From the NCBI GenBank assembly GCA_013180625.2, contig SNVD02010085.1, positions 124,001 to 188,000 on the forward strand: a stretch of DNA of 64,000 bases, given 5' to 3'. The position numbers and the translations under genes were made by a program. Source of the DNA: Boswellia sacra (taxonomy: Eukaryota; Streptophyta; Magnoliopsida; Sapindales; Burseraceae). Each line of letters starts with the position of its first letter. The stretch's first letter is position 1. Below the pieces are notes generated by a model. It was given only the letters and a program-made list of their open reading frames with translations. It was not told the origin of the DNA and searched no databases. Below are positions 11,850 to 63,452 of the stretch, in pieces.

Positions 11850-12399
11850 TTTGAAAAAAAGTGATCAATTGTTACTGCTTGTGATGGACCTAGAAATTCT
11901 TCTAATAAAGGTCATTTTCAACAATGACATAAAAGGTATCTAGTGCTAATTATTATAATGGACGAAACTTAATCCATATATATATATATATAGTATGTCT
12001 GTATGTATATGTAGAGGCACGCACACATACATATGAGATCGGATATTTAGACTTAAATTTTCTAATTTAAATATATATTTAAAATTCTAGTAATCGGTTT
12101 CAAATATTTAATGGTTGGAATTATTAATGACTTTTCATCATTAAATATTTTCTGGCAAGTCTCAAACCAGTCAAAAAAGAAGTCTCTTAGACTTTGTCTG
12201 GCTTGTAGTAGCTGTGAATAAACGCCGTCTCTGGATGCATATAATCTGAATATTTCACTCCAGGTTGTGAAAATTGAAGCTATTACATGAGGGCTCGTAA
12301 TTATACCTCTAACATATGATTTCAAGATGAAACGCATAGGACAGGACATTTTACTCTGTCATTGAATGCCTCGAAAACTAACAACTCTCTATTACCCAA
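11850..12399 (-). other. Sequence homologous to the 3' flank of the membrane-protein gene
   Basis: 12,110-12,350 shares blocks with 48,490-49,190, for example ...ccgtctct.ttgatgcatata, gatttcaagaagaaac and the ...acattttac block, in the same order and orientation. The latter is the downstream flank of the gene ending at 49,302. So this is the 3' flank of relic copy A, which begins at ~12,400. An (AT)n run is at 11,976-11,991. Confidence 0.55.
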
Positions 12400-12970
12400 G
12401 CGGAGCCTTGCTTTGTTCTGTCCTTAGGTGAATGAACTCACAGCCATATTGGCGAAATTGGGCTTCTAATTGAAGTCAAGTAGCTTCAACAGAGCAATCA
12501 CCACTTTTAGCTCTAGCATTGGCAGCATTGTTACTAAATTTATTACTTAGTTAATATAAAGTTTCTAAGCTCTACCTATTTGATCCTCGTTAACAACTTC
12601 GAGTGTGACAATTACTAATCCATGTAAAAGTCTCCACTATTCAGAGAACAGATAAAGCACATTCAAGTACTTGTGTATCCATCAACCAATGGTGTTGGCT
12701 GGCCTGACGATCAAGGAGTTTGATATGGTAGTCTCGACCCAGTGCCTAACCGAATCACCGAGGCATTCATGGTCTTGGATCAAACCATTCTTTGAGGAAC
12801 ATTGGAAACTTTGATAGCTTGTCTAGAAAGCACTCTCTAAATGGCTCTAGACTTGGCAGTATTAGATGTAACATTAATCAGAGAACGTCTTAGTGATGAA
12901 TTATTGTCCATTTGGCTTGTCGAATCTATATTCTTCTAGGAAAGCAAATACAAAGAGAATCCACAGTCGG
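12400..12970 (-). pseudogene. Relic A of the membrane-protein family (3' exons)
   Basis: It is nearly collinear with 45,530-46,095 (relic C), including the block ending in the last exon (gggcttctaattgaagtcaa), the tail exon (…cagtgcctaa..gaatcaccgaggcattcatg) and the end of the membrane exon (ttattgtcc…ttggcttg). Several stops interrupt it. No membrane exon of full length remains. It stands about 33 kb from its closest relative and is followed directly by a Gypsy-like fragment. Confidence 0.7.
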
Positions 12971-30177: not shown

Positions 30178-32208
30178 TTTATGTAAAGCAATAGGGAAAA
30201 TTTATGGGCCCCATTTTATGGGGCTTTTCTGAAATAGCCGTCCCGCCAAATAGTTTTCATGTCATGCCTCCAACGCCACAAAAAGCAGAAATACCCTTCA
30301 TCTGCTCTTCTTCTTTTTCTTTCATCTTCTTCATTTACTCTCTAACTAACTCGACTAACTCATTAACTCTTACAAACAATAAGGAAGCAAATTCATTTGG
30401 TTGTGAACATAAAATAAATTCTACATGTATGTCTAAAAATTAAACAACAGAAAAATTGAAAGAAAATAGCAACAGCTAGAAAGGTAATATATGATCTCCA
30501 AAATCTTGTTACATGCTAAAGTTAACCTTATATTATTTCGAAGCTTATTTTATTGTTTTTTTAACCGTCTTTAGTAATTCCGTACTGTAAACTACCTTCA
30601 AAAAGTTATACAATCGTATCATTTATTAACTCAAAAAGAGTTTTTAATTGGTATTTACATAGATCAACATGTAATTCCCACTTGCTCACTAATTAATACA
30701 TGCATTGATTTTTTAAATAAAGGCCCCTCACAATCAACCGTCATCAAGCGACCGCTGACCATAATACATTTAATACTGAATGAAATGTTGATGAAACTTC
30801 CTCGTACGTGGGAGCACTTAAAAAAAAAAAAAGTGTCAATTGCCCTTAAATGTAAACTTGTATATATTAATATACACCATGATGTGGCTGACGACAAAAG
30901 CCCCTGGCTTTGCCTTTTCCATGTTTTCTAAGATGTATAATTCTGATTCTTCTGCCGTATGATTAATACTGGCTTTGGTACTTGAAACGATATTTCAGTT
31001 CGCCACTAGCCACTGCCGAATTTAATTAACTTATCTACCTATCTGGTCATAAGTCTATTCAAAGCTTGGCTGGTCGTGAGTGAAACGATATTTCAGTTCA
31101 CCACGGGAAATGTGAAAGTAAAGTTCGCGAACTTATAAAGGTGTAAAAGAGTTCAATAATTGTTTATTAAAGACCAGTTACGACCTTTCATTATCTCCTA
31201 TTGGCAACAAAAACATCGTAGTCTTAAAATTTGGCTATTGGAAGAAATTTTTAAATATCGTTAGAATTTTTTTGATATAGAAGTAGATAAAAAATTTTAA
31301 ATACTAATTTTTATAATTTAATAATTAAAATGATTAATAAGCTAACACCATTAAATAAATAAATATATATATATATTTTTTTCAATTTTTAATATCAATG
31401 TCAGATTAGCTATAATCAATAATTTGTAATTTGTAATAAAATTTACGAGTAATTAATGACGCCCCCATTGTTTAGGTGAAGTATACTCTTCCCCAACCTT
31501 TAGTAAAGTAACATACAAACTTCTAATTTTTAAATATTGTTAATCCATCTGTTAAATATATCACGAAAAGATAATTTTACTTCATTTATATTATAAAATT
31601 TATTATTTATTTCTCTATATAAAGCGGATAAATTTTAAAAACACAAACATGACTCGAAAGATTAATATTTTTTAAAATTTTGTAGAAAATGATTTGTATA
31701 GATGGTTTGCAAAAAAAAAAAACGATTTTCTAAAAATAAAACACAAATATGCAGTCTATTAGATCAAAAAAAAAAGTGAAACATACTAAAAAAAAAAAAA
31801 AAGTAAAATTTCTTCTACTGGTTTTCAGAAGAATCAGAACCTAGATAAAGATTAGTTTCTTGATTTTTCTTCAACATCTAAAAAATTTCTAAGGAAGTTT
31901 CTCCAAAGTGGTGCATGGTTGAGAGCCTTGTCTCACCCAATTATAACAACAATAAAAGATTTCACAATTGAAGAAGGTATAATAATTCTCTGATGTTGTA
32001 TATATGCTTTGCATTTTTCCAATAAAGGGTTGATGAGAAATGTAAAGCAACAAGACATTTTACTTCATCAATGTCTCTAAATGTAATAGGCAAAATTTAA
32101 AATGACTCTCTTTTAAAAGTCAAGCGCCTTGGATTATTGACTATTCTTCTTTCGTGAAAATGAAATGAACACTCGGACACTTTGGAGAAATTGGGTTTCT
32201 AATTGAAG
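30178..32208. other. AT-rich intergenic stretch
   Basis: No gene is supported; an open frame at 30,204-30,443 lacks any recognised domain. It includes copy 2 of the dispersed repeat (31,235-31,440). 31,840-32,208 is probably the 3' flank of copy B of the membrane-protein family, since it resembles 49,190-49,300 in the ...acattttact.catca.tg.ctct block. Confidence 0.4.
31235..31440. repeat. Dispersed AT-rich repeat, copy 2
   Basis: Same order and orientation of blocks as 16,930-17,130 (ttttttgatata.aag.agata, tttttataatttaata, cagattagctataatcaa). Confidence 0.5.
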
Positions 32209-33761
32209 TCAAGAATCTTCAGCACAGCCATCATCACTTTCAGCGACAACATTGGAAGCATTGTCGTATTTTATTCCTTGGCAATCATTAGAAGTCTTAG
32301 CATGTAGTTCAGAAAACTCTTGGCCACCAGCTTCAATTTCATCACACCCGACAACCTGCTCCTTAGGATGTTCAAGAAAACCTTAGTCGATTCCAGCCGC
32401 AAGTGTAACAGTCAAACACAATCAAGGAAATATTATCCATTGGAGCTTTAGATATGCATTGTTTACTTAAATCATATTGTTAGTTGTTAGATTAGTATAA
32501 GGTTTATAAGTTCTACCAGGCTAAATGTCATTACCTGATTAATCAAGTTCTAGATAGAAAGCGAAGAAAATGATTAATGCAAAGAGCAAGAGGACAGGTG
32601 AAACACTTTCATGCACCTCAATACGAGAGCCGGTGCCTGAGCGACCCAGCGAAGCATTTTTGTTCTCTATATGTTCAGCAGCTATAGAGGTGGATGGTGA
32701 AATTTTGATGGCTTGCTCATCACAAATCTCTTGCCCATCAGCTTGAGGCTCGCAAGACACATTATCCTGATCATCAATAAGCAAACATTAATGATGCCCA
32801 CATTTGTATCTTGATGTACTGCATACTGCAACCACTCATGCTGGTTGCCTTAACAATCAGCTGGTGTCGTATAAGGGTAACACAAAAAAGACTCACCGGA
32901 TTAACACGGTTGACCTCGGCCCCTCTCACGTTTGCCATTGGAAAATGAGATGGAATATCAATAGGAAAATCGTTTGTTGACGAAGTATTATTGTCGCTAT
33001 AGGGTGGTGCATTAGTAACTTTTCTATTCTTTTGGAAAGCAAAATGAAGGATACTTATAGCAAGACTAGTGGGAAAGCTGATGCATTAGTAGTGCTCTTC
33101 ACACCCAAAACAGCTAGAATAAAGTGAATGAATGTAACAATCAATTGGACTGTCGAGAAGACAATCTCTGTCACCTCAAGCTGTTTATCAGCCTGCGTTT
33201 TGGTTTCGGCACCACGGCTTCCTTTCTTGATATTACCGTAAATTGTTAAAGCAAATCCAAGTATTGACAAGAGAAATGAAGGAAGAAGGAAACTCCATTT
33301 GTTTTTCCCTATTACATCCAGTATAAATGATGTTGCCTCCAACACAATGAAAATCACCACAATTCCACGCCTCTTATAATCAACAAACTCTGCTGGCTCT
33401 TCTTGCCGCTTGATCTACAAGTCAAAAGTTATGGAAGAAATATACAGAGCAACAAAAGGAAAATCTTTGTTTATCTATTAAGTCTGAGAAGAATTTTGAT
33501 GATGAAGTTTTTACTTTAAATTATCAATCGAAAATTTAAAACACAGATGCATGAATGGATTAAATATGAAGAATTATGGACTAATGTATTTGATTATTGG
33601 AAAAAAAAATCAATAAACCGTTAATGTCGAATCATACGATCAATTAGGACAAATATAAAGCATAGAGTCAAACTCTTCTGTAGTATCAACGTAATTAATA
33701 ATCGTGTATAATCATCAACTTCCCGAAAAGGTCAGACAAGTGAGACCTCTATATTATGGGG

Positions 33762-42190: not shown

Positions 42191-44594
42191 GATCATCTCT
42201 CTCAAAGACTAAGCCAACATCCACGATTTTCAATAAATACCGTAGAATCCATTTCACTGCTTGCCAATGTCCTTTACCAGGATCATGCATATACCTGCTC
42301 ACAACTCCAACTGCATGTGAAATGTCGGGTCTCGTACACACCATAGCATACATCAGGCTACCAACTGCATTAGCATACGAAACTCGAGACATATACTCTC
42401 GTTCCTCATCTGTACTAGGAGATAAAGATGCACTGAGCTTCATATGAGGAGCAAGTGGGGTACTTACAGGTTTTAGACTGCTCTGTAATGCCAAACCGTT
42501 GTAATACCTTCTTCAGATACTGCTTCTGAGTCAAACAAATCTTGCTTCTCCCTCTATCTCTGCTAATCTCCATGCCAAGAATCTTCTTAGCTTCACCCAA
42601 ATCTTTCATCTCAAACTCTCGATTCAACTGAGTCTTCAACTTTACAATTTCTTCAACATTCGTCGAAGCTATCAACATGTCATCAACATACAAGAGTAGA
42701 TAAATGAAAGAACCATCAATAGCCTCCGAAAATACACACAATTATCAAATTTGCTTCTTGTGTACCTCTGACCCATCATAAACCGATCAAATCGCTTATA
42801 CCACTGTCTGGGAGATTGCTTCAAACCATAAAGCGATCTTTTCAGTTTGCAAACCAAATTTTCCTTACCAGCAACTTTGAATCCCTCTGGCTGAGTCATA
42901 TAGATTTCTCTTCCAAGTCACCATGTAAAAATGCAGTTTTTACATCAAGTTGAACTAGTTCCATATTCATCTGAGCTACCAAGGCCAACAAAATTCTAAT
43001 GGAAGAATGTTTCACAACTGGAGAAAATACCTCATTGTAGTCAATTCCTTCCCTCTGAGCGTAGCCTTTAGCCACCAACCTTGCCTTGTAGCGGACGTCA
43101 TTCTTGTCAGGAAATCCATCTTTCTTTGCATATACCCATTTGCACCTAATTGCCTTTTTACCCTTCGGTAGTTGAGCTAGCTCCCAAGTTTCATTCTTCT
43201 GAAGAGACTGCATCTCTTCACTCATAGCTGTCTTCCACTGATCAACTTCAGAACATCTGACTGCCTCTCTATAAGTGGAAGGAACATCAACATCTACAAT
43301 TGGAAGTGCATAGGCCACCATATCAGCAAATCGAGCAGGTCTGCGAATCTCACGTCTTGGCCTATTAATTGCAATAGATTCTTGTTGCTGTTGAGGTTCC
43401 TGAGTAGAACCCTCACCATCATCTCCCAAATCCTCCTCTGTCACAGGAGTATCAACATCTGTCTCAACAGATCTAACTGGGTTCAATGTCATCGTTTCAA
43501 ACTCCACCTGCTGCTGAGTATGCTCCACCTGCTGTGGAGTACCATTCACCTTTGTCTGGTTTTCTGATTTCTTTAACATTGAAGACTCATCAAATGTCAC
43601 ATCTCGACTGGATACAATCTTCCTCGAACTAGGACACCATAGACGATATCCTTTTACTCTTGAAGCAAATCCCAAGAAAATCGCTTTCTTGGCTCTAGGA
43701 TCCAGCTTAGATTCTTTCACATGATAATATGCAGGAGAACCAAAAACATGTAAAGAATCATAATCAGAAACAGGTTGTCCAGACCATACCTCCAATGGAG
43801 TTCTATCACCAATAGCAGCTGAAGGTAGACGATTAATGAGATGACATGCATAAGTCACAGCCTCAGCCCAAAATTCCTTGCCTAACCCAGCATTGGACAA
43901 CATACACCGAACTTTCTCCAGCAATGTCCGGTTCATGCGTTCTGCCACCCCATTCTGCTGCGGTGTACCTCTAACAGTAAAACGACGTACAATACCTTCA
44001 TCTTGACACAATTTCAAAACTGATCACTACAATACTCACCACCATTATCTGTTCTGAGATGCTTGATCTTCTTGCCAGTTTGTGTCTCAATCATCTTTTT
44101 CCATTTAAGGAAAGTACGAAGTACATCATCTTTTGATTTCAAACAGTACACCCAAGTTCTTCTGGAAAAGTCATCCACAAAAGTAACACACCTGATAAAA
44201 CCGATTGATGTTCATCTTCGAAAACAGAAGCTGCTCCCCCCAACTTTCCCTGAAGTGTAAAACACAGAAAAAAAGTATCGAAGTAATCGGGTCCAATTCC
44301 AAGTAAAATAATCTGATTCCAAAACCGAAATACGTAAAATGAGAAAAGGAAACATATTTTGTCGTTAATTTTAGGCTCTCATTAATGTACCTCTTTCTGG
44401 CGATTCAGAGCAGCGACTTGGACCTTGGCTCTGAATCGAAACCTTAGATTTGGATTTCAGAGCTGTTCCTGATACACTTTTGGTTTCTCTCCAGGATTCT
44501 CACCTGAATAGCTCTCCATGGGCTCTAACTTCTTTTTACTCTCTTTTTTTTTTTTTTTAATTATATTTCTTTAAGATAAAGAAGCCTTATTGTT

Positions 44595-44730
44595 GAAAGT
44601 TCCCTACTGTCTATATAGGCAAATACCGTGTGAGAAGGGGAAGAAACTACCAAGAAAGGCCCAAGTTCCGCACTGTTTATGCAGGCAAACACCGTGTGAT
44701 AAGGAGAAGAAACTACCAAGAAAGGCCTGT
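44595..44730 (-). promoter_or_regulatory. Promoter of copy B: TATA box and duplicated 65-bp block
   Basis: On the minus strand TATATAG (44,612-44,617) lies 93 bp before the ATG of exon 1 (44,519). The block agttcc.cactgt.tat..aggcaaa.accgtgtga.aagg.gaagaaactaccaagaaaggcc is present twice in tandem (about 44,598-44,662 and 44,667-44,729); the distal copy has lost the TATA (tatgca). A single related copy with TATATAAA lies before copy C (46,816-46,823). Conservation between the two copies supports a promoter role. Confidence 0.6.
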
Positions 44731-45529
44731 GGTTCTCGCTGACCATCCCCCCGTTGACAATGGTTAGTCAAAGGTTGCTTATTTTAATTGGAAGAATTTT
44801 AAGTTTTAGTTGCAACATATTCATATTTTAAATCTATTGAAAATCATTCGGTAAATGCGATTGACTTTGCAATCCAAAATCTTAAGACAAAAAGCAATAT
44901 AAGAAACCAAATAACTTCTCCAATCCACTTTATTATTTTTTTTTTTTAAAGAAAAAATTCCCACGATTTAAACATTAGTTTCTTTTACCTTTTTCTATTT
45001 TTATTAAATGGCCATTCACTAAAAATAGGGACATAATTGATACTTTCAAAATAAGAGGGGTAATCCCAATTTTTGTTTTTGATAAGGATATATAATCGGG
45101 TCATTAATTTTTATTTTTATATTGTGTCAAAAATAGAGGTGGTCAAATATTTATCCTGGATGATGACAAAAAAATGCAAAACAAAAATTGTATCCAGTTG
45201 CCATTTCTTGGAACATGATGGTGATACACACATGTGAGTGTTGTCCAATGGGGCGTTGGTGAAAGACCTTTTTTTTTTCTGCTTGTCTTTGACTCTTCCT
45301 GTATTTCTTTGGCTAATCTGATTCTTCCCCATGTTGTTTCAAGAAAACCAATTTATCCCCTTTAGTTCTGAACCTTACTATCCCTCACCTGACATTCCTG
45401 AGGTTTAGCCAGGCTATCTAACATTAATTTAAATTTAATTAAAGATTTCTAGACTATTAGATTAGTCCTTATATTTCAATCAAAAAACTAGTTTCAAAAA
45501 CCTCTAGATTTAATTTATTAATCCAAACA
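44731..45529. other. Upstream region of copy B, non-coding
   Basis: 44,780-45,080 aligns with 46,975-47,280 upstream of copy C (...aaaatcatt.gg.aaat..gattga.., ...ttaaatggccatt..., attgatacttt.aaa), so the duplicated unit included about 0.5 kb of upstream sequence. 45,080-45,529 has no supported feature. Confidence 0.5.
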
Positions 45530-46738
45530 GAGCCTTGCTCTGTTCTCTGCTTGGGTGAATGAATTCACAGCCATATTGGAGAAATTGGGCTTCTAAATCG
45601 AGTCAAGTACCTTCAACAGCGCAATCACCACTTTTGGCTCTAATATTGGCAGAATTGTTACTAAATTTATTACTTAGTTAATATAAAGTTTCTAAGCTCT
45701 ACCAAGCTGATTTTCGATAACAACTTCGAGTGGGACAATAATTAATCCATGTAAAAGTCTCCTCTATTCGGAGAACAGATGAACTGCATTCATGTACTTA
45801 GGTATCCCGCAACCGATGGTGTTGGCTGGCTTGACGATCAGGGAGTTTGATATGACAGTCTCGATCCAGTGCCTAAGTGGATCACCGAGGCATTCATGGT
45901 CTTGGATCGAACCCTTCTTGGAGGATCATTGGAAACTTTGATGGCTTGATCAGAAAGCACCCTCTCAATAGCTCTAGGCTTGCCAGATACCGAAGAATTA
46001 GATGTAACATTAATCGGAGGACCTCTTGGTGATGAATTATTGTCCGTTTGGCCTCGCGAACCTCTATTCTGGGATAGCAAACACGAGAAAAATTATAGCG
46101 AAGACTAGTGGAACAAATAACTGATGGAATATTAGGACTCTTGACACCTGAAACGGCCAGAATAAAGTTAATGAATGTTCTTATCAACTGGACCGTGGAG
46201 AAGACTTATCAGGTGGTGGTGGTGGTTTGGGCTTTGCTACTACTAGACGTTTGTATGGCAATAATGGCTCGCTTTATGAGTCGCTTGATGACACATCTGC
46301 AGATATGCCACGAGGGTTAGTGACAAATAAAAATAACCGTATGTTAAATTGGGAAGAAAGATGATGGATCACCTGATGAAACCAATTGGTATTCATCTTC
46401 GGAGATTGGCCCAACTGCTCTCTCCAACTTTTCTTGTAGTGTAATTCAACCCACCAAAAAAAAAAAAAAAAAAAAGCTCAATATTGTATTTCTATATATA
46501 TGGCTAATTAATATTCCCATAATCGAAGCAACATCAGAGAAGACCGAAAGGAAGTTCGTTATGGACGGATCTGTTTCTGGCGATTCAGCTGAGCAGCCTC
46601 TTCATTGGAGGGGACGTTGGTTCTTAATCGAAACCTTAGGTTCGGATTTCCGAACCTTGACGTTACCCTTCCAATCGTATTGGTCCGAACGTGATAAGCT
46701 TCCTCCTCTCCAATATTCTCATCCGAATACCCCTCCAT
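45530..46738 (-). pseudogene. Copy C of the membrane-protein family, internally deleted
   Basis: Exon 1 (46,571-46,738) begins MEGYSDENIGEEEAYHVRTN and contains NPNLRFRLRTNV; its donor GT is changed to AT. Exon 2 (~46,378-46,433) reads KLERAVGPISEDEYQLVSSG but is one base shorter after the acceptor than its relatives. Exon 3 (from ~46,305) has stops and runs directly into the third membrane helix of exon 4 (TFINFILAVSGV), so helices 1-2 and an intron were deleted. The tail exon (about 45,838-46,080) and last exon (45,540-45,640) follow. The order matches the intact gene, and the copy is clearly dead. Confidence 0.75.
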
Positions 46739-46815
46739 CGGCTCTAGCTTCTTTAACTCTGTTTTGTTATGTTTAATTTTTAACAAAAGGTGCAATAGTT
46801 GGAAGCTTGTTACTG

Positions 46816-49301: not shown

Positions 49302-52300
49302 TCAAGTAGCTTTGACAATACGATCATCACTTCCAGCTCTAACATTGGTCTCATTGCTATGCTCTTGAAAATCATTAGAAGTCTTGTTCGGTTCAGAAAT
49401 CTCTTCTTCATCTGCTTCAAATTCATGAGCACTTGCAACATCCCGATCCTTGAGAAGGTCAAGAAAACCTTATTTAATTCCTCTTGTATAACAGTCCCAA
49501 CAAAATTAAGTAAATATTATAGGTTTTGATGATATGCATCCTTTACTTGATAAAAGTTTATTACTCAGTCAAAAGTCTACCTATTCGTATATAGAAGTCA
49601 AGTTTTAGATAGAAAGTAAAGAAGTGATAAACTATGAAAAGCAGAGGACATATGAAACACATACTTCCTGCAATTGATGTTGGCTAGCTCGACGATGAGT
49701 GAGTTCACCATGAGAGGTAAGCCTGGAGCCGGTGCCTAAGTGACCCACCGAGACATTTTTGTTCTTTATAGCTTCACGAGCTTTGAATGTGGATGGTACG
49801 GTATTCGATCGAGCCATTCTTCGAGGATCATTGTGAGCTTTGGTGGCTTGTTCAGAACGCACTTCCTCAACAGCTATAGCCTCGTTAGATAGAATGTGCG
49901 CCTGATGATCAATAAAACACCAGTTAGTTCTGCAAACCAATTAAAAGCAAATACTAATTTTATTATTTCTCGTTTGTATCCTCATGTAGTGCAACCACTC
50001 ATGTTGGTTGCTTTGACAATCAGTGGTGCCATATAAGAGTGAAAGGTGACACAAAATACACTTACAGGGTTAACAGGGTTCGCCTCATCCCCTCTTGCGG
50101 GCGCGGTTGCCCTTGGGGTATTGGATGGAAGATTATTCCGTGCCCGAACACTTTGTCGTAAATTATACCAAATTATAATTATCTCAAACAGTAGTGGGGA
50201 AAGGGCTGGAATATAAGGACTTTTCTTATGTAAAGCGGTCATTGTAAGATCAATGGATGAATAAATCAATTGCCACGCGGCGAAGCAAATCTTTGCCGCA
50301 TCAATTATTTTTTCGGCTTCAGTTTTGTTTACTGCGTGAGGCTTTTCTTTCCTATAATCCCAAACTGCCAAAACGAAACTCAACAATGCCAGCGAAACTG
50401 AACCAATAAGTAACTTCAATTTGTCTTTCTGACGTAGCTCCAGTATACCTGGCATTGCCTCCAGTATAAATGCCATTGCCTCCATCACACAAAAGATCAC
50501 CGAAATCACAAATCCTTTTTTCCTTCTAGCAACTGACTCCTGCTTCCATTTACATTTGATTTAGAAATTAAATATACAAGGAACCCCAGATATTACTTGT
50601 TATAAAGCGAAAAGAAATACACTACGGTGCATGACTTGAAAAAAAAAAAATCAAGAATAAGGTTAAATTCAATTTAAATATAAAGAAAAAACAAGTGACT
50701 TTAAATCATATTTTGGGAAGAGCTAATCAATAGAGAAATATAATTTGTCAACAAGAAAGCTTCTTACTACTATAAATTTTATGTTTTCTTTTTTTATTTT
50801 ATTTTACATATTTGATCAATTAATAATTTAAAAAATTATTATTTTATATATTTAGTGAGGCTATTAATTTAGTACATAGGCCTGAGTCTAAATTAAAAAA
50901 TTTTATTATTTAAAAGAAGTTATTAATTTATCGAATATTTATTTATCGAGATTTTATTGTATAAATTTAAGTAAAACCACACATTCACTTACCACATATG
51001 GGGACACGGTGGGCAAGCGATGGTCTGGGTCGTCTCCATTTATGTTTGTTTTTTTCCTTAGCCATTCCCGCACATACTGCGAGAATGCATGGAGGCTTGA
51101 CCGCGTACCTGCAAGGCTTGACTATGGTTAATGAGTAATTAATAATAAGCTTAAGTTTAATAGTGAAGAAAGTATGGATCACCTGATAAAACCGAACGAT
51201 TTTTATTTTTCGAAGGCCAACGAGAGAAAAAAAACCGAGCTGCTTTCTCCAACTTTGCCTGCACAGTAAATTAAACCCAACAAATGTAAACTTAGTTTAT
51301 ATTGTTATATAGCTAATTGATTCCCATAAATCTCATTAAAATAGAAGCATCTGAAACCAAGTTTATTATAGCCTCATGGACGGACTTCTCTTTGGTGAGT
51401 GACAGTGGCATCTTCTGATTGTCTGGAGACCTTAGCAGGGAATCGACGTCTTAGATTCGGTTCTTTGAATCGTTCTGACTTCAGATTCGTATCAGCCGCA
51501 GAATCATTAATTTCTTCTTTAGTGGCTTCAGATTTGTCAATCTGGTCCTGAGGATGTTGAACAAAGCCTTAGTCAATTCCGCAAGTGTCTAAATAATTCA
51601 AACACAATCAAGAAATATTATCAATTTTGAATGTGACAATAAATCGCAGTAACAGTCTCCACTATTATTAACTAACAATCCAATTTCAGAAATAGAGCAA
51701 ACTCACGTCGACCAGTGCCTTAGATTGAATTTGATTATGGATTTTGTGTTGGTTATAAAAACTTCTGTGTTAAAGTGAAAATAAAAATTTCTTCATACTT
51801 TTCTTAAGGAAAAGGACCAATGATAATGATAAATATGTATTTGATTTTAAAAATTTTGTAATGAGAAATGTATTTAATAAGAAAGTTGAAAAAATAAAAA
51901 ATATAATAAAAAATTTCAAATTCTACAAAATATTTAAAATATAATACTTCATGAATAAAATGTTTTAAATTTAATTAAATGAAATATAAAATGAATTAAA
52001 AAGTAGAGAGGATAAGGAAAAGAATGGAGAAATTGTTGGTTTCTCCTTAGGTGGAAATTGCACTCACGGTATTGTGTTTTCTCTTTTCATTCTTTATATT
52101 TCATTGAAATGGCCATCGAAGCTACTACTACACGAACTCCTATATATCTAAAGGAAAAATAAAAATAAAAAATAACAAAACAAAATAATGAAAACTGAAA
52201 ACATAGGCATCTAAAACAGCCAGTCTTAGCAACTCACTGAAGCATTTTCGCTCTTTATGGCTGCAAGAACTTCAGATGGAGATGGTATATCTTTGGTCCT

Positions 52301-55300
52301 GGGTGTAACTATCTCTCGAGGATCATTGGAAACTCCGATGGCTTGTTCATAATGCTCTTCCAGAACAGATGAGGGCAAGCCAGAGACATCGGACTGGTCA
52401 TCGATAAAAACCTAGCATGTATAATCAAGAGTTATAAGCAAATATTAAGATTATGTGAGAGTCAAGTGCAACATAAAGAAACTCACCGGCTTAACAACAA
52501 GCGCAGAATTCAACCATTGCCTAATATTAAGAAAAGATGCTCTTCTTGATGAACTATTGTCTCTATTCTTTTGGAAAGCACGCTCAAGGAGAATAATAGC
52601 ACAGACGGCTTGTGACAAGGCCGATACAGTAGTGCTCTTCACATCCAAATGGGCCAGAATGAATTGAATGAATGTAACTATCAACTGGACTGCAGAGAAG
52701 ATAATATCTGTCTCCTCAAGTTGTACAGTAGCATGTGTTTGGATTGCTGCATGATCTATTTCTTCTTTGATGTAAGCGTAAATTGACAAAGCAAAACCAA
52801 GTCCTGACAAGGGAAATGGAGGAAGACGAAATATCCAGTTATCTTTCCCAATTACATCCAGCAAAAATGCTATTGCCTGGAATGTTAAGATGGCCACCGA
52901 AATTGCACGTATCAAACTTCGAACATGAAACTCCCGATTCTCCTGCTGCTTGATTTATATATTAAAATTATATTAGATAGAAAGCATTTAATAACTAAAA
53001 GAAAATCTCATAAAATTCTTTTTCTAATATTTTACTGTATATTTAGGGATTTGACTTATTCTTAGACTTGGTACATTTTTTAGTTTTTGTTTATTGAACT
53101 TAAGTTTGACTCTCAGACAATTTGACCTAGATTAAAGAAAGCTACTTTTTTAATTTTTATCATGAGTCCCATTTTTTCCTTTATATAATACTTTTGCAAC
53201 CTCTATATACATAGCCAGTGCTAATATGAGTTCTAAGATGAATATTAGAGTGTGCTAGCTAGTAAGAGTATCCATTTTGAATTTTGATTTGTTATGTTGT
53301 GGTTAATAGGCCTTTAAGTGAAACATGGAAGAAATAAGAATTCTATATGTGCAATAAAATTATATATAACGTTGCAAAACCACCTGGATGCAAGAGTCCT
53401 TTAGTAATAAACTATTACTCTGTAGTTTTGTTAAAAATCTAGCAAGTTATTCATCAAACAGGGGGAAATCCAAGAAAAAAAGGAAGAGGCATGATGCAAA
53501 AACAATGAATGCGCAATCATTGGGAAAATAACAATATCATCCCTAAGGTTTACTTTAAATAACTTGATCCACGAGGTTTTAGAAATATAAAATAACATCC
53601 TTCAACCTTCAATCTAATGTGTATAAAATAAAATTTATGGATACCCTTTTTGAAAATCAAACAACCTCACTTCTCTCATTTTTTTTTTATGTTAATTGTT
53701 GATCAAAAAATTTTGAAAATTTATAAAATTCATATAAACACACGTGACTCGATAGTAAAAGCCTGCATATTAAAAAATTATGATTTTCAATTTAGTTTAA
53801 ATATTACAAATTGTTTCTAATAATCTAGATTTGGCTAAATATATTAATTTTTGGCATAATTATTTGGATACATGTTTTTCACTAAACTGACAAGTTCTCA
53901 TAATTTTATGATGTATAGGCAAATTGATATGATTTTTAAAGATAAGTTGTTTAATTATGAAAAGAGCCATATCAGGCATTTTAAAATTTTTCATAGGTTG
54001 AATCCATGGTTAAAGAATGTTATTTTTACGGTGGGACCCATCATAATACAATTTTTCTTTTTATGATAAATTATGTTCTACTTGCAACATACTGTACAAT
54101 CACTATAAGCATTATAATACATTGTGAACGTTGGTATAAAGTGCTAAATTTTCTATGAATAAAAATTTATTCACAAATTTTTTGTTCTTTCAATGATAAT
54201 TATGTCGTTATCAACTCTCTGGATATGAATAGTTACAAATATTAAATAGGTAGTCTCACCGTGTTTCTTATGGATAAATATTCAACCTTAAAAAATTATA
54301 TAAATTTTTATAAAGTTGTTTAAATTTCTTTGAAAACTATAGATTCTCTTGAAGACTATATAAAAATAATTAAAAAAATAAATTTTAAGAGAATTTACAT
54401 AATTTTCAAAGATTTGACATATGCCCTTAGGATACAAGTTAAGATTACTTATATTAAATTTCTATTGTTAATGAATTTCAATTTTCACTAATTATATGTT
54501 TAATTTATTTAATATTTTAAACCCAACCGCATTAGCAGACTCACCGTGGCATTTATGCTTTCCATGGTCTTGGGTGCAACTACGTCTCGGGGATCATTGG
54601 AAACTCCGATGGCTTGTTCAGAAGCCTCTTGCAAAACAGCTAAGGGCACGCCAGAGACATCAATAAAATCCTAGCAATTATAAGCAACAGTTGCGTAAAC
54701 CAATTTTAAGCAAATATTAAGATTACATGAGAGTCGAGTGCGACATAAAGAGACTCACCGGGTTAACATCAAGCACAGAATTCAACCATTGCTTAATATT
54801 AAAAAAAGAACCTCTTCTTGATGAACTATTGTCCCTATTCTTTCGGAGAGGACGCTCAAGGAGAATTATAGCACAGATGGCTAGTGAAAAGGCCGATACA
54901 GTAGTGCTCTTCACACCCAAATCGGCCAGAATAAATTGAATGAATGTGACAATCAACTGGACTGCAGATAAGACAATATCTATCTCCTCAAGTTGTACTG
55001 TAGCATGTGTTTGGATTGCTGCATTATCTGTTTCTTCATTGATATAAGCGTAAATTGACAAAGCAAAGCCAAGTCCTGAGAGGGGAAATGATGGAAGAAG
55101 AAATATCCAATTATCTTTCCCAATTACACTCAGTGAAAAAGATACTGCCTGGACCGTTAGGATAGCCGCCGCAATTGTACGTGTCACCCTTGGAATATGA
55201 AACTGTCGGTTCTCCTGATGCTTGATTTATAATTTAAAAGTATATTAGATAGAAAGCATATAATAATTAAAAGAAAATCTCTTAAGAAATAGTATCTCAC

Positions 55301-58300
55301 TTTTCCCATCCCTTCCATTCTCCTCTAATCCACCACACACAACCCTAAATCTAAACTAACCAACCAAGAGTACAACACAACCGAATGCAAATAATACTCA
55401 GTCACTCTTGCAAAAACTAAAAACAAGTGTTCAAAATCTTTATATTATCAGAAGTTCAAATCTTTCTCTAACATTTTCTTCAAGTTCATGGCTGTCTCGC
55501 CACATTAGCAAAAAACCAAGCTTCCCTCGGCATCATCACCAATCAAAGGTTTCTGGGTAGCTATTTTATATATATATATATATATATATTCACCATTTTC
55601 TGGTGTTGATGTGGTTGCTGGTCCGTGGGTTGGCTTTGGAAAGGTGATGTTGGTGAGGGTTGAGGATAATTTGGCGATGATTATGATGCAAAGGCGACCA
55701 AAAATTTGGTGGTGCGGCTAGTTTTGTTGTTTTGTGGATTAACTTTTTTCCCCATTTTTTGCATGTTGATACGGACTCTGACGATCCATGGATTGGCTTT
55801 GATGATGGTGCTAATGGTGATGTAGCGGTGATTGTGATGCAGAGGCAAACTGTGTGGTGATAGGGGTGATAGTGATGCTGAGGATCAAATGCAATGCTAC
55901 TGTAGTGGTGGTGGTGATGCTGAGATGATGCCACTGTGGTGGTGATGGTGATGGTGATGCATAGAACTGTGGTGGCGATGCGATTGGTGATGAGCGGTGA
56001 TGGAGAGGCAGGGTTAATGGCACTATGACGGTGATGAAGATGCAGGGCGATGCTACTGTTTAGGCTTCTAAAAATTTTCCAAATTTAATTTATTTATTAA
56101 ATATAATTATATATTTCTATTAAGGGTTTTAATGGTAAAATATCTATTTTACCATTCTCCATTTCTTTAAAAGGAGACAAAATCTGTTAATTGAACCAGG
56201 TGAAAAAAAAATAGAACTAGAAGGATGCAACGATACAAAGATGATAGTCACTTTTCGATTAATATGAGGGCAGACTTTAGTGATAATTTCTTATATAATC
56301 CCGTTAATGAATTCTATGTTTAATTAGTTAAATATTTTAAATTATATCATTTAGCTAATAAAATATATCAGAATCAAATGTTTTTTAGCTTTGTCACATG
56401 TTGGGTAATATATATATTCCCATTAAATATATTCTTTTAGTTATTTATTTGATAAACTTTAAGTAATTAATGTTTCATTTGCTTAATAGTTAAATAAAAC
56501 TGAAGAATGGGAAGATTGAATTTGCAATGAAAGAAGATTAAAAAGATTGACTTGAAGCCGAATAAGAAAGAGATAAGTCAACAAAGATACAAAAAGAAAT
56601 TGAAATGACTCAAATTAGGAGGACAAATTTGGAAGACAATTTCAGGGCAACTAACACTTTAAGTTTAATTACACGGGTCACACATATTCCTCAACTTCTC
56701 AGAGGAAACGAAAATTGCAAGAGCAAGGATTTGAATCTTTAATCACTTGGACACACGTCTTTTATTATATAGAAAGCTGATAAGAGAAATTGACACGTCA
56801 ATTTGTGATTCTTCAATAAAATGCATGTGCTACATATTCGTCTAAGAAGACTACGAGAGTTTGTTGGGGAGTGCAAAAGCAATAAAAATGTGATAACTAG
56901 GAAGAGAGCGAATGCACGTGAATTGGAGAGCGTGGCTGCATTGGAGGAGACGCAAGGCTTAGAGCAGTGTTGTTTGGTTATCTAGTGGCATCTGGTTCTT
57001 GTTTACTTTTAGTTTTTATATTATTTGTGTTGCTAGATTATTTAGCCGAAATTTATGATGAAGCCAATATATAATAAATAATTTTCAAATATGATTATTT
57101 TCCAATTTCTAAATTTCAATATTTATAATTCTTGATTCAATTCTTTAAATGAATAAATATTTTTTTTTCAGCGCTATCATGTAGTTATGAGAGTTTTGAC
57201 TTATTTAGTTAAATTAGTCTTAAATGTTTGAATGATTAATTTGTTTGATTTATTGCTTTTAGTTAGAAATCATCTTAGACGATTAAAAGTTAATCTTTTA
57301 GTTGAAGAAAAATCAAAGTTAGGGTTAAAAAACTTAGTTTTTAATTGTCAAAATTTGAGTCAGCAGGATTGATTTCACAATGGATTTTTTTTTGGAAAAG
57401 GCTGATAACTAGAAAATTAATCTGACTTAAACATTAGTGAATTTAGAAATTCTAGCTATGGTTATTCATTGGATTTTTCTCATTTTAATTTTGTCTTGTT
57501 TGCTTGCTATTAGTATCAAATGCGACGTATTACTATGTGTCATGCACATGATTATTTTGGACAAATTTATAATTCAAACATCTTGTCATATTATTTCTTA
57601 TTTTACTGTTTCTAGAAGTTTATTTTAGGAGGTATATAATTCTTATTGAATATTTCTCTGTATTAGGATATTGTTGTAGTATCCTCATTGGATTAGGAGA
57701 ATGTTTATTTGTATCATGTTCTATTTAGGAGATTACTTATATCACTTCCTAGATTATTGATCATTATCCTATTTGTGTTTGACTGAGATTCTATAGGATA
57801 TTGGCAACCATATTACACACTATAAAAACAGACACCTGCTGAATGTGAAAGTAGAGAAGAGGAGCAAGATATAGCAGTGTGTTTATTTTGATTATGTTTT
57901 TGTGAATGTTTTATTTATATATGAGAGGTTGTGTTCGTGTTGATCAAGTCTGGTTGAATTAGTAGTCATTCAAGATAACTTGTGAGTTAAATATTTATGT
58001 AATTCAGTGTCAGACATTGTTGTTACAAATTACTTAATTGTGTGTTGTTAAGTTGTCAGCATTAGGGAATGAGCAGTGTCACTAGAGTTTAAGATATTGG
58101 AGGGATTTAGTTTTACAAAGATTAGGTCAGTGTGTGAGAGTGAGTCAGCAATATAAACGCATCTAAAGATTGTAAAAACAAAAATTTAGTGAATTACAAT
58201 GCTAAGCTATCCGTGAACGTAGATTTTATAACAGAACCACGTAAGGTCTCATACTTGCTTTAATTGTTTTCATTATGAGTTTAATTTTCTTAAGTTGTTA

Positions 58301-59681
58301 GTTAATTATTTTGAACTAGGTTAACAGTTAGATCAATTCAATTAAATTAGTTGCATGCGAGTTGGCAATTTCTCTGGGTTAGAACTATACCACGAGTTTA
58401 TACCACAAATCTTTGTCAACTTAATGAATTTAAAAAAAACCACACATTCACTTACCACATTTGACGATAACCTAGGCAAACTATCGTGTTCCATTTTGTT
58501 TGTTTCTTTCCTCGACACATCTTGTAGTGATGACACCTTTCCCGAGAAACTTGACCGAGTATCTGCAAAAATTCCACGAGGGTTATTAACTGTTATTAAC
58601 TAACAACAATACCTTAAGTTAAATTTAACTGTAAATTATTGAAATAGAGAATAAGATGAAAAATAAAAAAATCTTAACCACATATGTGTCAGGGAAATTT
58701 TGAAGACAGATGATGGATCACCTAATGAAGCCAATTGAGATTCGTCTTCTGATACTAGCCCAAGTGCTATCCCCAAATTTCCCTGAAGAGTTAATTAAAC
58801 TGGACAAAAGTGAGTCACAACTAATTGATTCTCATAATTTCAGTGACATCAGAAATATCGAAAATTAAGTTCATTATAAACTCGGTGACCAACCTCTTTC
58901 TGGTGAGTCACGGCAGAATCCTCTTCATTGGAGACTCTAGTAGGAAATCGACACCTCAGATTCGGGTTTCTGAGTCGTTCTGACCTTAGATTTGTATCAG
59001 CCGTAGCAGCTTCAGTTTTGTCACTCGTGTCAACATGGTCCTAAAGATTTTGAAGAAAACAATAAGTCTATTCTAAGAATAATTCAAACGCAATCAAGAA
59101 ATATTATCCGTTTTCAAGTTCATATAGCTCTTAACTACTAATATTTTTACTTGGTTAATATAAAGATTATCAACTCTACCGTACCAGGCTCATGAATGTG
59201 ACGATAAATCTAAGTAAAAGTCTTCCATATTCTTCACTAAGAGTCAAGTTTAAGATTGAGATCTAGAGCAAACTGATAAACTATTGAAAGCAGAGGACAG
59301 AAGAAACACATTCACTGCCTTAGCGACTCACCGAAGCATTTTTGCTCTCTGTAGCTGCAGGAACTTCAGATGTGATCAGTTGGCCTATCCTTTGAGGATT
59401 ATCGGAAACTTCGTTGGCTTCTTCGGAATGCCCTTGCCCAAAGGCTGCGGGCTTGCTAGACACATTGGCCTGGTCATCAATAAAACCGTAGACAGTAGTG
59501 TAATCCAAAAATAAGCAAATATTATTATTATATGAGAGTCAAAATGTGACGCAAAGTGATTCACCGGCTTATCATCGTTGACAAGGGAATCAAAAAAATC
59601 CTTGACATACTCCTCATGCAAAAAGCCCCTCTCATGCTGATTTCGTTCATTAAAAGAACTTTTTAATGATGATCGCCGCTC
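49302..59681 (-). CDS. Multi-module four-helix membrane protein, 15 exons, apparently intact, unknown function
   Basis: Exons (minus strand): 59,565-59,681; 59,332-59,469; 58,894-59,040; 58,722-58,782; 58,456-58,562; 54,759-55,214; 54,545-54,670; 52,487-52,942; 52,238-52,411; 51,386-51,547; 51,183-51,258; 50,993-51,108; 50,066-50,539; 49,665-49,901; 49,302-49,448. All are open, with GT-AG borders. Every junction is phase 0 except those after 58,722 and 51,183 (phase 1), both compatible. Total 2,994 nt, about 997 residues plus stop. It has three full membrane modules (four helices each, then a hydrophilic tail) plus a truncated first one. The two junction exons (58,894 and 51,386) start like the family's last exon and end like its first. 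The protein ends ...SDDRIVKAT. I recognise no named domain. The start codon and promoter, upstream of 59,681, were not found. It is probably a membrane protein; transcription is not shown. Confidence 0.7.
50066..50539 (-). other. Membrane exon, module 3 of the multi-module gene
   Basis: 158 codons. Hydrophobic stretches: VISVIFCVMEAMAFILEA, LLIGSVSLALLSFVLAVW, ICFAAWQLIYSSIDLTMTAL and LSPLLFEIIIIWYNL. The loop between helices 2 and 3 is lysine-rich (DYRKEKPHAVNKTEAEKI). It is the most diverged of the three modules. It is followed by NNLPSNTPRATAPARG and the splice donor after NPVNP. Confidence 0.7.
52487..52942 (-). other. Membrane exon, module 2 of the multi-module gene
   Basis: 152 codons starting ENREFHVRSLIRAI. 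Hydrophobic stretches: ISVAILTFQAIAFLLDVIG, RLPPFPLSGLGFALSIYAYI, IIFSAVQLIVTFIQFILAHL and VSALSQAVCAIILLERAF. The tail DNSSSRRASFLNIRQWLNS precedes the donor. It is about 80% identical by eye to module 1 at 54,759-55,214, which indicates a recent duplication of the exon pair. Confidence 0.75.
54759..55214 (-). other. Membrane exon, module 1 of the multi-module gene
   Basis: 152 codons starting ENRQFHIPRVTRTI. The four hydrophobic stretches are IAAAILTVQAVSFSLSVIG, LPSFPLSGLGFALSIYAYI, VLSAVQLIVTFIQFILADLG and VSAFSLAICAIILLERPL. It is joined to a short tail exon (54,545-54,670, DFIDVSGVPLAVLQEASEQA...). Same length and same exon phase as module 2. Confidence 0.75.
55560..56060. repeat. Low-complexity GGTGAT-rich tract with an (AT)n run
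   Basis: (AT)n at 55,570-55,590. 55,600-56,050 is rich in ggtgatg/gtgatgc units, purine-skewed on this strand. His-rich minus-strand frames here are products of the repeat. It sits in the long intron of the multi-module gene. Confidence 0.6.
57031..57508. repeat. Duplicated segment, copy 1 (copy 2 at 62,900-63,452)
   Basis: Starting tgctagattatttag and running to ttgtttgcttgc, it matches 62,899-63,383 in the same direction with scattered differences. The match continues after the insertion at 57,509-58,253, from 58,254 (ttaattgtttt.cattatgagttt) to 58,333. Confidence 0.8.
57509..58253 (+). mobile_element. Solo-LTR-like insertion, ~745 bp
   Basis: The insertion is defined by its absence from the second copy of the surrounding segment (63,383/63,384). 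cttgct flanks it on both sides (57,503-57,508 and 58,254-58,259), as a target duplication would. The content looks like an LTR: a TATA-like cactataaaaacagac (~57,818-57,833) and Copia-LTR-style sequence near the end (aaccacgtaaggtctc). The termini are not a clean TG...CA, so the exact class is open. Confidence 0.5.
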
Positions 59682-62600
59682 CTAAGCAAAACATTAAAAG
59701 GTTTAAGTAGTTTGCAAAGAAAATTCAAATAAATTGGGCCATTTGGTTATGTACTATGTGTTTTTATTTTTAAAATTTTTATTTAAATATGAGAATGTGA
59801 AATATGTTTATATATTTCACGAGAGATTTGAATTGTGTGAAAATATATTTCGTTATATATACTTGAAGTTTTCACTTTAATGAACTATAATTAAAATGAT
59901 AATTTTTATTTTTAAATAATAAAAAATTAAAAATATAATATTTATTAAGTAATATAATTTGTAATAAAAAGATAAAGATTGTTTGAAGGAAAAAAACGAA
60001 GAGAAGGCAAATCATGTAGAGTGAGAGAAGAGAGAAAACAACTTTTTTTTTCATTTTTATTTTTCTGAAAACTATGCTTTGTATGTGTTGTACTTATATT
60101 TTTTGTTTTCTTTGTTTTGAAACGAAAATGACTAAATAAACAGCTTCTGCACAAATTCCTATGTTCCCAAACCAAAGTGAAAATTGTTAAAACAACAAAA
60201 ACACATAAACAGATGATATATACTTTAAAATAAAATATATTTTTTCATTGATTCGTGTATGGTTACGATTTTGCGTGGGAATTCTATTATTTTTAAAAAT
60301 TTAATTGATTAGTAAAGATGGATGGAAGCTGCTGCACGTGAAAACTTATTGCACTGCAAACAAAATTTAATGGAATTTTTTTTTTCAAGTGTAGCTCCCC
60401 ATTGACATTAAGGAGCTCTGTATTGCTTATAATGGAAATTATAGTAAAGGCTAGTGAACACGCGAATACAATTATAAAATATTGTTATTTCGAATTTTAT
60501 TAATTTTACTTATAATATATCTATTGAATTTTAAATTTTTATGTGTCAAATAATTTTTTAAATTAAAATATAATTATATAAAATATTTTATTTTATATTA
60601 CTAATTTATTTTATTTATTTTTATTCGAAATCATTCGCATGAAAACGAAAAGTAAGAAAATAAATAAATAAATAAACCCTAAAAGTGGATCAACGTGTTC
60701 TAGTATCACTGGCTAGGGTGAGTTGCATTCGCTATTTTCTTGTGTTCTAGTAGTAGGTTATGTTTCACTAGTACTCTATATTTAGCACTAACATTTAGTA
60801 CTAACTTAGGGCTAGTTTGTTTTTGTTTTTAAAAAAGAGTAATGCTACATTTATAAAGTTTATATGTAAAATTTGTACATAAAATTAACATGAAATCAAG
60901 TGAATGGAAAGATTTTTATGAGTTATTAATATAATAAATGTTAACGAGTTATATGACATTGAATAAGTAGTGTCACATCAATGTTGCATACAAATTTCGC
61001 ATATAGACTTAGTAAATATAGTCTTATTCTTTTAACAAATAGTTTTCTGAAAATGCATATTTACTATCGCATTTAAATCAATAACAAAAACACATATCAT
61101 TTTCAAAATTCAAAAAATTTATAATCAACCACATAATCTTTCCAAATTTTGAAAACAAAAACTTATAGACAAACAAACAATCTCAATATTTCTTGGTAAA
61201 CTCTATTCTAATTAAGGGGGGTTAGAATTATCATTTTATGTTCATGATATATAAAGAGAAAGAAGGTATTAACCTTTTTTTAACACTTTTTCTAGAAAAA
61301 GATTTAAAAAAATTCGTATGAAAAATAAATTATCACTTGATTAAAAAAAAAAAAGCTCACCGATTTCTTACTAGATTAGAAAGTTAATTCAGAATATTTA
61401 AGAAAGCAAACAACATTTAATTGACATTCATATATTTTTATACAGTTTTTTTATTTTATTTTCTTTATCACAAACACCATTTGATTTTATTTCTATACAT
61501 TTCATTGATCTAGTTGTCTTCCACGGAAACCTTTTGGACCATAGTTGCCCATTCAAGTGATTTGTTTTGGCCGTAACTGAGCGAGGGCCTAGAGCAAAGT
61601 TACTCGTGAAGGTTTGCAGAAAAGTTTTATGGGATTGCCAGCAAACTTAAAAGAGTTATGCAGAAACGGAGGTGAAAGATTTCTTAAGATGAAGGGACTA
61701 TGTTTATTTTTTAAAAATGGAATTAAATAAATTTACTTTCTATATAAAAGAGATAGACATAAGTGGTCTTTCCTATCTAAGACTTAATGTACGTATATTA
61801 ATATGAATTTAGATAGAATTGAGAGAGAAAAATTATATAAAAAGAAGAATATTTTATTAGGGTTAGATATGGAATTTTAAAGTATGTATGAATAAAAGAA
61901 TAAGTTATGAAGATTTTCTTAATGGGTGTATAAACTAATTGGGTGTTTAGAGTAGTTGTCAGGATGCATATGGCCCTACCATATCCATTACGAAAATTAA
62001 ATAAACCAACCCAAGCCAGTTAATTTCAGAATTCTGTCCCTAGTTTTGGTCCATTAAAATCAACCACAATTCTTGAATTACCTATCATGCTCTTAACTTG
62101 AATTAAATTGTTGGCACCCTGCTAGCATTCAAACCCCGTTATCTTTTGCTTGATTATTAACTTCAAAAGAGTAGATTTTTGTGGCAACAAAATATATATT
62201 CTCGAGATAATGTAAATAATGAGACACATACATTGTCACTAAAGATTAACGACCTAGAATGTATAATATATATTTTGTACTGAAATCAAATCATTTCTAT
62301 AAGCTTGCTCGTATGGGGCTTGTTCCAAGCTGAACATCAAATTGGTGAAAACAAAAACACATTTCAATGGCAATGGATTTAATCACTATTTTTTTCTAAT
62401 CTCAGATGAACAACACATTTTTCTTCAGTCATTCAAAATTTTCTTAACAATTACTTCCAAAATGTTTATGAAATACTTTTATTAATAAATTTGATAAACT
62501 TAAATTATTTAAATACTAGTAAAATTTTATGTTATTCATTTATCTATCTTATTAATTATGTGCAAAAATTACAATAAAACTATATTTAAATAAAAATATT

Positions 62601-62898
62601 ACTAAAGAATGATAAGTCAAATAAAATTAATAAAAAAGGTGTAATTTCATTCCATTCGATTTGAAAACAAGAAAGATCTAAAGCTTCCTTCATGTATCTC
62701 TATGGAAATACCCATAAAGTGTATTTTCTGTTTTTATATTGTTAAATTAAAAGAAAATAGTTTTTAAAAAAATATTAAAATATTACTAAAATACTAAATT
62801 TAGTGGCTTTTATATGATTATAAGAATATTTGAATGTTTTCCTCAAATTTAACTCTCTAAAATAGTTGTTTATTTTCAATTTATATATTTTTATGCAT
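59682..62898. other. AT-rich stretch upstream of the multi-module gene
   Basis: No exon resembling the family's first exon (ME.YS.EN) was found here. It contains a MITE at 60,835-61,032 and AT-rich sequence only. The start of the gene may be a short exon here that I cannot recognise, or it may lie beyond the window. Confidence 0.4.
60835..61032. mobile_element. Small MITE with ~40-bp inverted ends
   Basis: The left end gtaatgctacatttataaag...tatatgtaaaatttgtac matches the reverse complement of the right end gtatgc/aaatttcgcatatagacttagtaaatatagtctta. About 200 bp in all; target duplication not resolved. Confidence 0.6.
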
Positions 62899-63452
62899 TG
62901 CTAGATTATTTAGTCAAATTTATGATGAAGCCAGTATAAAATAAATACTTTTCAAATATGATTAATTTCCAATTTTTAAATTTTAATATTTATAATTCTT
63001 GATTCAATTATTTAAATAAAAAAAAATACACTTTTTATCAGTGCCATCAATATCATGTATTTATGATAGTTTTGATTCATTTAGATAAATTAGTCTTAAA
63101 TGTTTGAATGATCAATTTGTTTTATTTATTGCTTTTAGTTAGAAACTGTATTAAATGATTAGATATTAATCTTCTAGTTGAAGACAAATAAAATTTAGGA
63201 TTAAAAACTTAGATTTTAATTGTTAAATTTTGTGTAGACAGGATTGACTTCATAATGGTCAAATTAATTTTTTGAAATAATTAAAAATTAGAAAATTATG
63301 ATTTAAACATTAGTGAATTTAGAAATTCTAGCGATTGTTATTCACCGGATTTTTCCCACTTTAATTTTGTTTTGTTTGCTTGCCTTAATTGTTTGCATTA
63401 TGAGTTTAATTTTATTAAATGTTAGTTAATTATATTGAGCTAGGTTAATAGT
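62899..63452. repeat. Duplicated segment, copy 2
   Basis: Direct copy of 57,031-57,508 plus 58,254-58,333, lacking the 745-bp insertion. It is broken after ...aggttaatagttag by the GC-rich element that follows. Confidence 0.8.

What the first reader, a model, noticed from the sequence alone, without database searches (positions are those of the whole stretch)
49302..59681. An apparently intact 15-exon gene built from repeated four-helix membrane modules
Fifteen minus-strand exons are all open, all have GT-AG borders, and all join in compatible phase over 10.4 kb (997 codons plus stop), in a region where almost everything else is dead. Three modules, each a ~150-codon four-helix exon plus a hydrophilic tail exon, are repeated in series, with a truncated module first. 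I recognise no named family. Keeping 15 frames open by chance is very unlikely, so selection or recent activity is implied.
Basis: partly seen in the sequence, partly recalled or inferred. Interest (0 to 1): 0.75.

Follow-up and report, generated by a model that had tools for sequence, protein, structure and literature searches.

The report
Plant gene of repeated membrane modules
This is a plant gene of at least 15 exons that strings together copies of a four-helix membrane module; a diverged second copy in the same genome has its frame open too, so it looks like a real, fast-changing gene of an unnamed family whose job is unknown.

Summary
Fifteen minus-strand exons (59681-49302), all bordered by AG and GT and in phase, give exactly 997 codons plus TGA. 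"Intact" is only partly right: the first exon starts at an AG, has no ATG, and no 5' end was found. The decisive evidence lies outside the window. Another contig of the same genome (C5482) carries a diverged copy: 16 exons, GT-AG, in phase, 998 codons, no internal stop. Over 921 aligned codons the copies differ at 593 sites; neutral drift to that distance would leave about 23 stops (minimum 10 in 2,000 simulations), and none is seen. Amino-acid constraint is weak: dN/dS is about 1.0 in tail exons and 0.69 in membrane exons, and one yardstick shows no constraint. The 13 named relatives found are Sapindaceae; several carry two modules plus a PB1 domain like that of auxin response factors. No Pfam family passes its cut-off in the parts searched. 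The window also holds four broken copies. Best reading: a fast-turnover, lineage-restricted membrane-protein gene grown by duplication of phase-0 exons. No expression evidence was available.

The parts
59565..59681 (-). exon A1 (39 codons): 5'-most exon found; resembles only the end of a membrane exon; no ATG
   Evidence: 87% aa identity and same AG/GT in the C5482 copy
59332..59469 (-). exon A2, hydrophilic tail (T2 type)
58894..59040 (-). exon A3, hydrophilic tail (T3 type)
58722..58782 (-). exon A4 (T4 type; 61 nt, shifts phase, compensated by A5)
58456..58562 (-). exon A5 (T5 type)
54759..55214 (-). exon B1, four-helix membrane module, phase 0-0
   Evidence: (four helices, low confidence)
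54545..54670 (-). exon B2, tail (T2 type)
52487..52942 (-). exon C1, four-helix membrane module (76% aa identity to B1)
52238..52411 (-). exon C2, tail (T2 type); a second in-phase AG lies 18 nt inside
51386..51547 (-). exon C3, tail (T3 type)
51183..51258 (-). exon C4 (T4 type; 76 nt, phase-shifting)
50993..51108 (-). exon C5 (T5 type; restores phase)
50066..50539 (-). exon D1, last and most divergent four-helix module
49665..49901 (-). exon D2, tail of last module
49302..49448 (-). exon D3, terminal exon with TGA
   Evidence: homologous stretches at 45.5, 32.2 and 12.4 kb
45529..46768 (-). relic E: T3, T4, piece of membrane exon with stops, T2, last-exon region
44189..45060 (-). relic H: T3 (one stop) and T4 pieces, next to a copia element
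32152..33414 (-). relic F: membrane exon ending early at a stop, T2, last-exon region; the copy closest to P0012-P0014 (48-50% aa identity)
12339..12951 (-). relic G: T2 with stops and last-exon region, 85% DNA identity to relic E
56999..58331 (.). part of intron A5-B1 whose two ends (56999-57507, 58254-58331) recur upstream of the gene at 62866-63455; probably a repeat element (inferred)

Best explanation
A protein-coding gene of an unnamed, fast-evolving family of plant integral-membrane proteins. Its repeating unit is a phase-0 membrane exon (four helices) followed by hydrophilic tail exons; because the exon blocks are phase-symmetric, tandem duplication or loss of blocks lengthens or shortens the protein without breaking the frame (the symmetry is seen; duplication as the cause is inferred). 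By charge distribution the basic tail after the fourth helix, and so the long linkers, probably lie on the cytosolic side (inferred). Most likely it acts as a multi-anchored membrane scaffold whose cytosolic tails recruit partners (inferred); in maple and Xanthoceras relatives that part is a PB1 domain, which this gene lacks. The frame is under selection while the tails are nearly free in sequence.
For: 15 open in-phase exons. Second copy on C5482 with 16 open in-phase exons, 998 codons. 0 stops against about 23 expected at equal divergence. Ten of 15 exon pairs differ in length, each by a multiple of 3, against 6 of 15 intron gaps; two of the ten, D2 and D3, are not independent evidence, since D2's donor was picked in frame and D3' ends at its own stop. 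Hydrophobicity of the helices is kept beyond neutral simulations for D1 (19 of 2000) and relic F (18 of 2000), starting from C1. Sapindaceae relatives with two modules in one protein and an ARF-type PB1 tail. Basic residues after helix 4 (helix borders set by hand).
Against: No start codon or 5' exon. No expression data. Overall dN/dS is 0.84 (0.69-1.01) and tails 1.00; exon divergence equals or exceeds intron divergence in several blocks, and pooled second positions do not differ from four-fold sites. B1 hydrophobicity relative to C1 is not beyond neutral (186 of 2000), nor are charged-residue counts in the helices (258, 411 and 401 of 2000 for B1, D1 and relic F). DNA alignments of the D2 and D3 blocks with the copy show gaps of 5 and 1 nt inside the window's exons, which the chosen exon model places after a shifted donor or behind the copy's stop. 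Structure models are low-confidence (mean pLDDT 50.2 and 53.7), so fold and packing are not shown. The scaffold role is inferred from relatives only.
Confidence: 0.7

Rival explanations
1. A recently silenced gene: frame kept by selection for most of its history, but this copy is now dead because its 5' end (promoter and first exon) has been lost.
For: No ATG in A1; no conserved ATG exon with a strong donor in 59682-63159; A1 keeps only the end of a membrane exon; four broken relatives in the window.
Against: The C5482 copy has the same 5' boundary with the same AG, in a 4.4-kb block 92% identical, and its downstream exons are open too, which would need two independent silencings or a young shared loss. 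Further tail units lie upstream in C5482, so a 5' end further out is possible.
Confidence: 0.2
2. Several shorter genes (A, B, C, D) rather than one.
For: B2 and C5 would run into a stop soon after their donors if unspliced (read from the sequence); 3.2-kb intron between A5 and B1.
Against: No membrane exon begins with an ATG; all joins are phase-compatible in both copies; a D3-like last-exon region follows a T2 exon in relics E, F and G; annotated relatives have two modules in one protein.
Confidence: 0.1
3. Chance chain of open exons in decaying duplicated DNA, no function.
For: Exon and intron divergence are equal in several blocks (A block 0.944 against 0.948); tail dN/dS is 1.00; second positions of B1 and C1 equal the neutral yardstick.
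Against: 0 of 2000 neutral simulations were stop-free for the copy comparison; splice sites and phases kept in a copy with 593 differences.
Confidence: 0.03

Closest known systems
Hypothetical proteins of Acer (EZV62_018902, Q3G72_001639, Q3G72_022937, EZV62_009312, LWI29_015364) and Xanthoceras (ACOSQ4_003954, ACOSQ2_004127, ACOSQ2_004138): P0001-P0008
   Same: Homologous four-helix module (profile E about 8e-18 for the first two), two modules in one protein
   Different: Six of these eight (P0003-P0008) end in a PB1-like domain by reading; the window gene has three modules, long tail exons and no PB1 match; B1 is 29-38% identical in its best BLASTP stretch
Xanthoceras ACOSP7_003913 (P0013: B3 + ARF_AD + module), ACOSP7_004049 (P0012: module + alpha-adaptin C-terminal domains), Dipteronia Ddye_000354 (P0014: module + sub-threshold HMA match)
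   Same: Same module, 31-40% identity to B1 and 48-50% to relic F
   Different: Module joined to other domains; each rests on a gene model and could be an annotation join
PB1 domains of auxin response factors ARF5 and ARF7 (4chk, 6l5k, 4nj6)
   Same: Tail of P0006 matches by sequence (best E 0.0062) and fold (Foldseek E 0.0026, TM 0.72 by target)
   Different: No match in the window gene
Pfam SLATT_4, Tetraspanin, DUF4293, DUF2231
   Same: Weak, sub-threshold profile matches
   Different: All below curated cut-offs

Membership tests
Unnamed four-helix-module family known from Sapindaceae proteins | Sequence homology of the membrane module | tested here: met
   Profile search: 2 proteins at E about 8e-18; 14 at E<=10 after adding them; BLASTP stretches of 29-50% for B1 and relic F
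Unnamed four-helix-module family known from Sapindaceae proteins | More than one module in one protein | tested here: met
   B1, C1, D1 in one phase-compatible chain here and in the C5482 copy; two in each of P0001-P0008. That one transcript joins them was not tested
Unnamed four-helix-module family known from Sapindaceae proteins | C-terminal ARF-type PB1 domain (present in a subset) | tested here: not met
   P0006 matches in the window end by residue 346, before nearly all of its PB1 region (338-414), and P0003 matches end by residue 294; two other copies in this genome have a weak PB1-like match nearby (L014, L022)
Auxin response factors | B3 and ARF_AD DNA-binding domains | tested here: not met
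   P0013 matches the window only from residue 385 on, its module part
Tetraspanin (PF00335) | Pfam gathering score | tested here: not met
   9.8 bits against 32.1, relic F only
SLATT_4 (PF18186) | Pfam gathering score | tested here: not met
   14.2 bits against 27, relic F only
Four-helix membrane fold | Solved or confidently predicted structure | tested here: inconclusive
   Four main helices predicted, but mean pLDDT 50.2; module parts of P0006 also low
Expressed gene | Transcript | not testable with these tools
   No RNA data held

The most novel reading that the evidence does not exclude
The four-helix exon is a promiscuous membrane-anchoring module of Sapindaceae and kin that has joined parts of auxin response factors (B3 + ARF_AD, and separately the PB1 domain), adaptin and metal-binding proteins, creating membrane-tethered signalling proteins; in the window it has multiplied into a long multi-module protein whose last module and tails are under diversifying selection.
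Probability: 0.25. Interest if true: 0.75.

Novelty: new variant of a known kind. Interest (0 to 1): 0.5.

Why it matters
It documents a long, multi-module membrane gene preserved in two diverged copies while relatives beside it decay, a good case for studying how symmetric exons let a membrane protein grow and shrink. The relatives link the same module to a PB1 domain like that of auxin response factors, which raises the testable idea of membrane-anchored auxin-signalling scaffolds in maples and allies.

Tried and rejected
Pfam on the membrane exons B1, C1, D1 and relic F gave nothing above cut-off and PDB sequence search with B1 nothing; Pfam on three joined tails (A2-A5, C2-C5, D2-D3; A1 and B2 not included) likewise. 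A protein search with the joined C+D part (613 aa) found nothing at E<=0.01; profile searches worked. Structure prediction of B1 (6 sequences) and of P0006 (16 sequences) gave low confidence in the membrane parts; fold matches of those parts to TRP channels and others were ignored as meaningless. Search for a conserved ATG first exon of 30 nt or more in 59682-63159: 5 candidates of 30-99 nt, none with a strong donor. Family exons upstream of the window, to 94 kb in window coordinates: only a T2 and possible last-exon relic near 90 kb. ARF or adaptin parts beside the module copies fetched from this genome: P0012 and P0013 matched those loci only in or beside their module parts. Literature: seven searches; only listings were seen, and of two large result sets only 15 of 123 and 10 of 278 papers were listed; no listed title or abstract concerned this family; no paper was opened; the library is open-licence PMC only.

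Results that cut against the reading: exon and intron identity about equal in blocks B/C and A/C and in the A block; pooled second positions 105/610 against four-fold sites 27/175, no difference; dN/dS of A exons about 1.
Full report
What was checked. The window is plant DNA with transposon remains (MULE and copia domains in the ten ORFs scanned). The fifteen exons were re-derived: with A2 at 59469-59332, A4 at 58782-58722 and D2 at 49901-49665 the chain is 2994 nt, 997 codons plus TGA, with AG before all 15 exons and GT after the first 14. Three full modules (B, C, D) each have a membrane exon of 152-158 codons and a tail exon; unit A has tail exons and only the end of a membrane exon.

The 5' end. 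A1 begins after an AG, with TAG immediately before it in frame and no ATG in frame. In the C5482 copy the same AG and exon are kept. In the 3.5 kb upstream that the two copies share, no ATG exon with a strong donor is conserved. C5482 has more tail-type units further upstream, 195531-194282 and 191855-190914. So the gene is at least 15 exons and its start is not known.

Where the family sits. Tblastn inside the window shows broken copies at 46.8-45.5, 44.5-44.2, 33.4-32.2 and 12.8 kb. The own genome (638.6 Mb, 7431 contigs; the window is C5094:124001-188000) has 27 matches to the B1 reading frame at E<=0.001, 150 of 212 candidates being scored. One cluster, C5482:163.5-181.2 kb, carries the whole gene again.

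The second copy. Using splice sites aligned to the window exons, C5482 gives 16 exons (one extra T3 exon), all GT-AG, all in phase, 2997 nt, no internal stop. D2' has a donor at a non-homologous place, and D3' stops earlier, both still in frame. Ten of 15 exon pairs differ in length, each by a multiple of 3 (D2 and D3 are not independent evidence for the reason just given); of 15 gaps in seven aligned introns 6 are multiples of 3. The extra exon A3'' was left out of the pairwise counts because it has no single partner.

Selection. Over 13 exon sets (921 codons, 593 differences) dN/dS (NG86) is 0.84 (bootstrap 0.69-1.01); membrane exons 0.69 (0.52-0.92), B1+C1 0.56 (0.40-0.82), tails 1.00 (0.78-1.30). 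A neutral simulation to the same distance gives 23.3 stops on average, minimum 10 in 2000, observed 0. Between-module tests alone were weaker: stop-free at the end in 3.5% (B/C), 3.3% (A/C), 0.1% (D/C) and 4.4% (relic F/C1) of 3000 simulations each. Against this, exon and intron identity are often about equal (B and C 0.863 against 0.884; A block 0.944 against 0.948), and second positions of B1 and C1 change as fast as introns plus four-fold sites. So the reading frame is clearly kept, the amino-acid sequence only loosely. In D1 second positions changed more (40/156) than intron plus four-fold sites (23/186; p 0.002, uncorrected; five exons were tested this way), a hint of diversifying selection, although NG86 for D1 alone gives 0.86. 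Tail exon C3 points the same way (NG86 2.72; 13/47 against 18/128, p 0.045).

Relatives. A profile of the modules found two Acer proteins among 6819 candidates; a second profile found 14 at E<=10 among the 7999 candidates scored. Thirteen of 14 carry a name: Acer, Xanthoceras or Dipteronia, all Sapindaceae; one (P0009) has none. P0001-P0008 hold two modules, the first incomplete in P0004 and P0005. Seven (P0003-P0008, P0010) show a PB1-like tail by reading. Two were tested: P0006's tail matches ARF7 and ARF5 PB1 in the PDB (E 0.006 and 0.07), P0003's only weakly (E 0.25 or worse). In the P0006 model the confident part is this tail, and it matches ARF5 PB1 (Foldseek E 0.0026). P0013 joins B3 and ARF_AD to a module, P0012 joins a module to alpha-adaptin C-terminal domains. 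In a tree of 29 modules the D1 modules of the two copies pair (0.998), B/C modules form one clade (1.000), relic F groups with two other copies (0.934), and that group is sister to the B/C clade with support 0.836. The species was not identified; kinship to Sapindaceae is inferred from the relatives.

How it most likely works. Shown: multi-exon frame in two copies, hydrophobic helices, basic stretch after helix 4, preservation of frame. Inferred: membrane insertion, cytosolic tails, scaffold function by analogy with the PB1-bearing relatives (the oligomerising role of PB1 in auxin response factors is recalled; 4chk's title names the ARF5 domain an oligomerization domain). Not shown: expression, fold, start codon, function.

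Noticed in passing
P0003-P0008, P0010 (Acer, Xanthoceras proteins): Four-helix modules (two, in P0010 one) followed by a PB1-like domain as in auxin response factors, present in two genera; my seven literature searches listed nothing on it.
   Followed up: partly
P0013, P0012, P0014: The same module joined to ARF B3/ARF_AD, alpha-adaptin C-terminal domains, or a sub-threshold HMA match; could be gene-model joins.
   Followed up: partly
L018:2139-3821 and L015:6598-5726: Long open frame (561 codons in L018) made of many repeated hydrophobic segments, running into a module copy.
   Followed up: no
L011:917-3: A membrane exon with the helix 3-4 part plus tail repeated three times in one open frame.
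   Followed up: no
window 50539-50066 against C5482:165237-164770: Exon D1 differs at 27.6% of sites while its following intron differs at 11.7%, an unusual reversal.
   Followed up: partly
window 63835 to 65190 in window coordinates (runs past the window end into L009): Tandem repeat block of about 450-nt units, 88-89% identical, upstream of the gene.
   Followed up: no
window 11041-11397: Laccase-like (Cu-oxidase_2) open frame.
   Followed up: no
window 7661-8035: Fragment matching ribosomal protein S6e.
   Followed up: no
window 40904-41837: Six tandem copies of about 165 nt, 60-86% identical to the reference copy.
   Followed up: no
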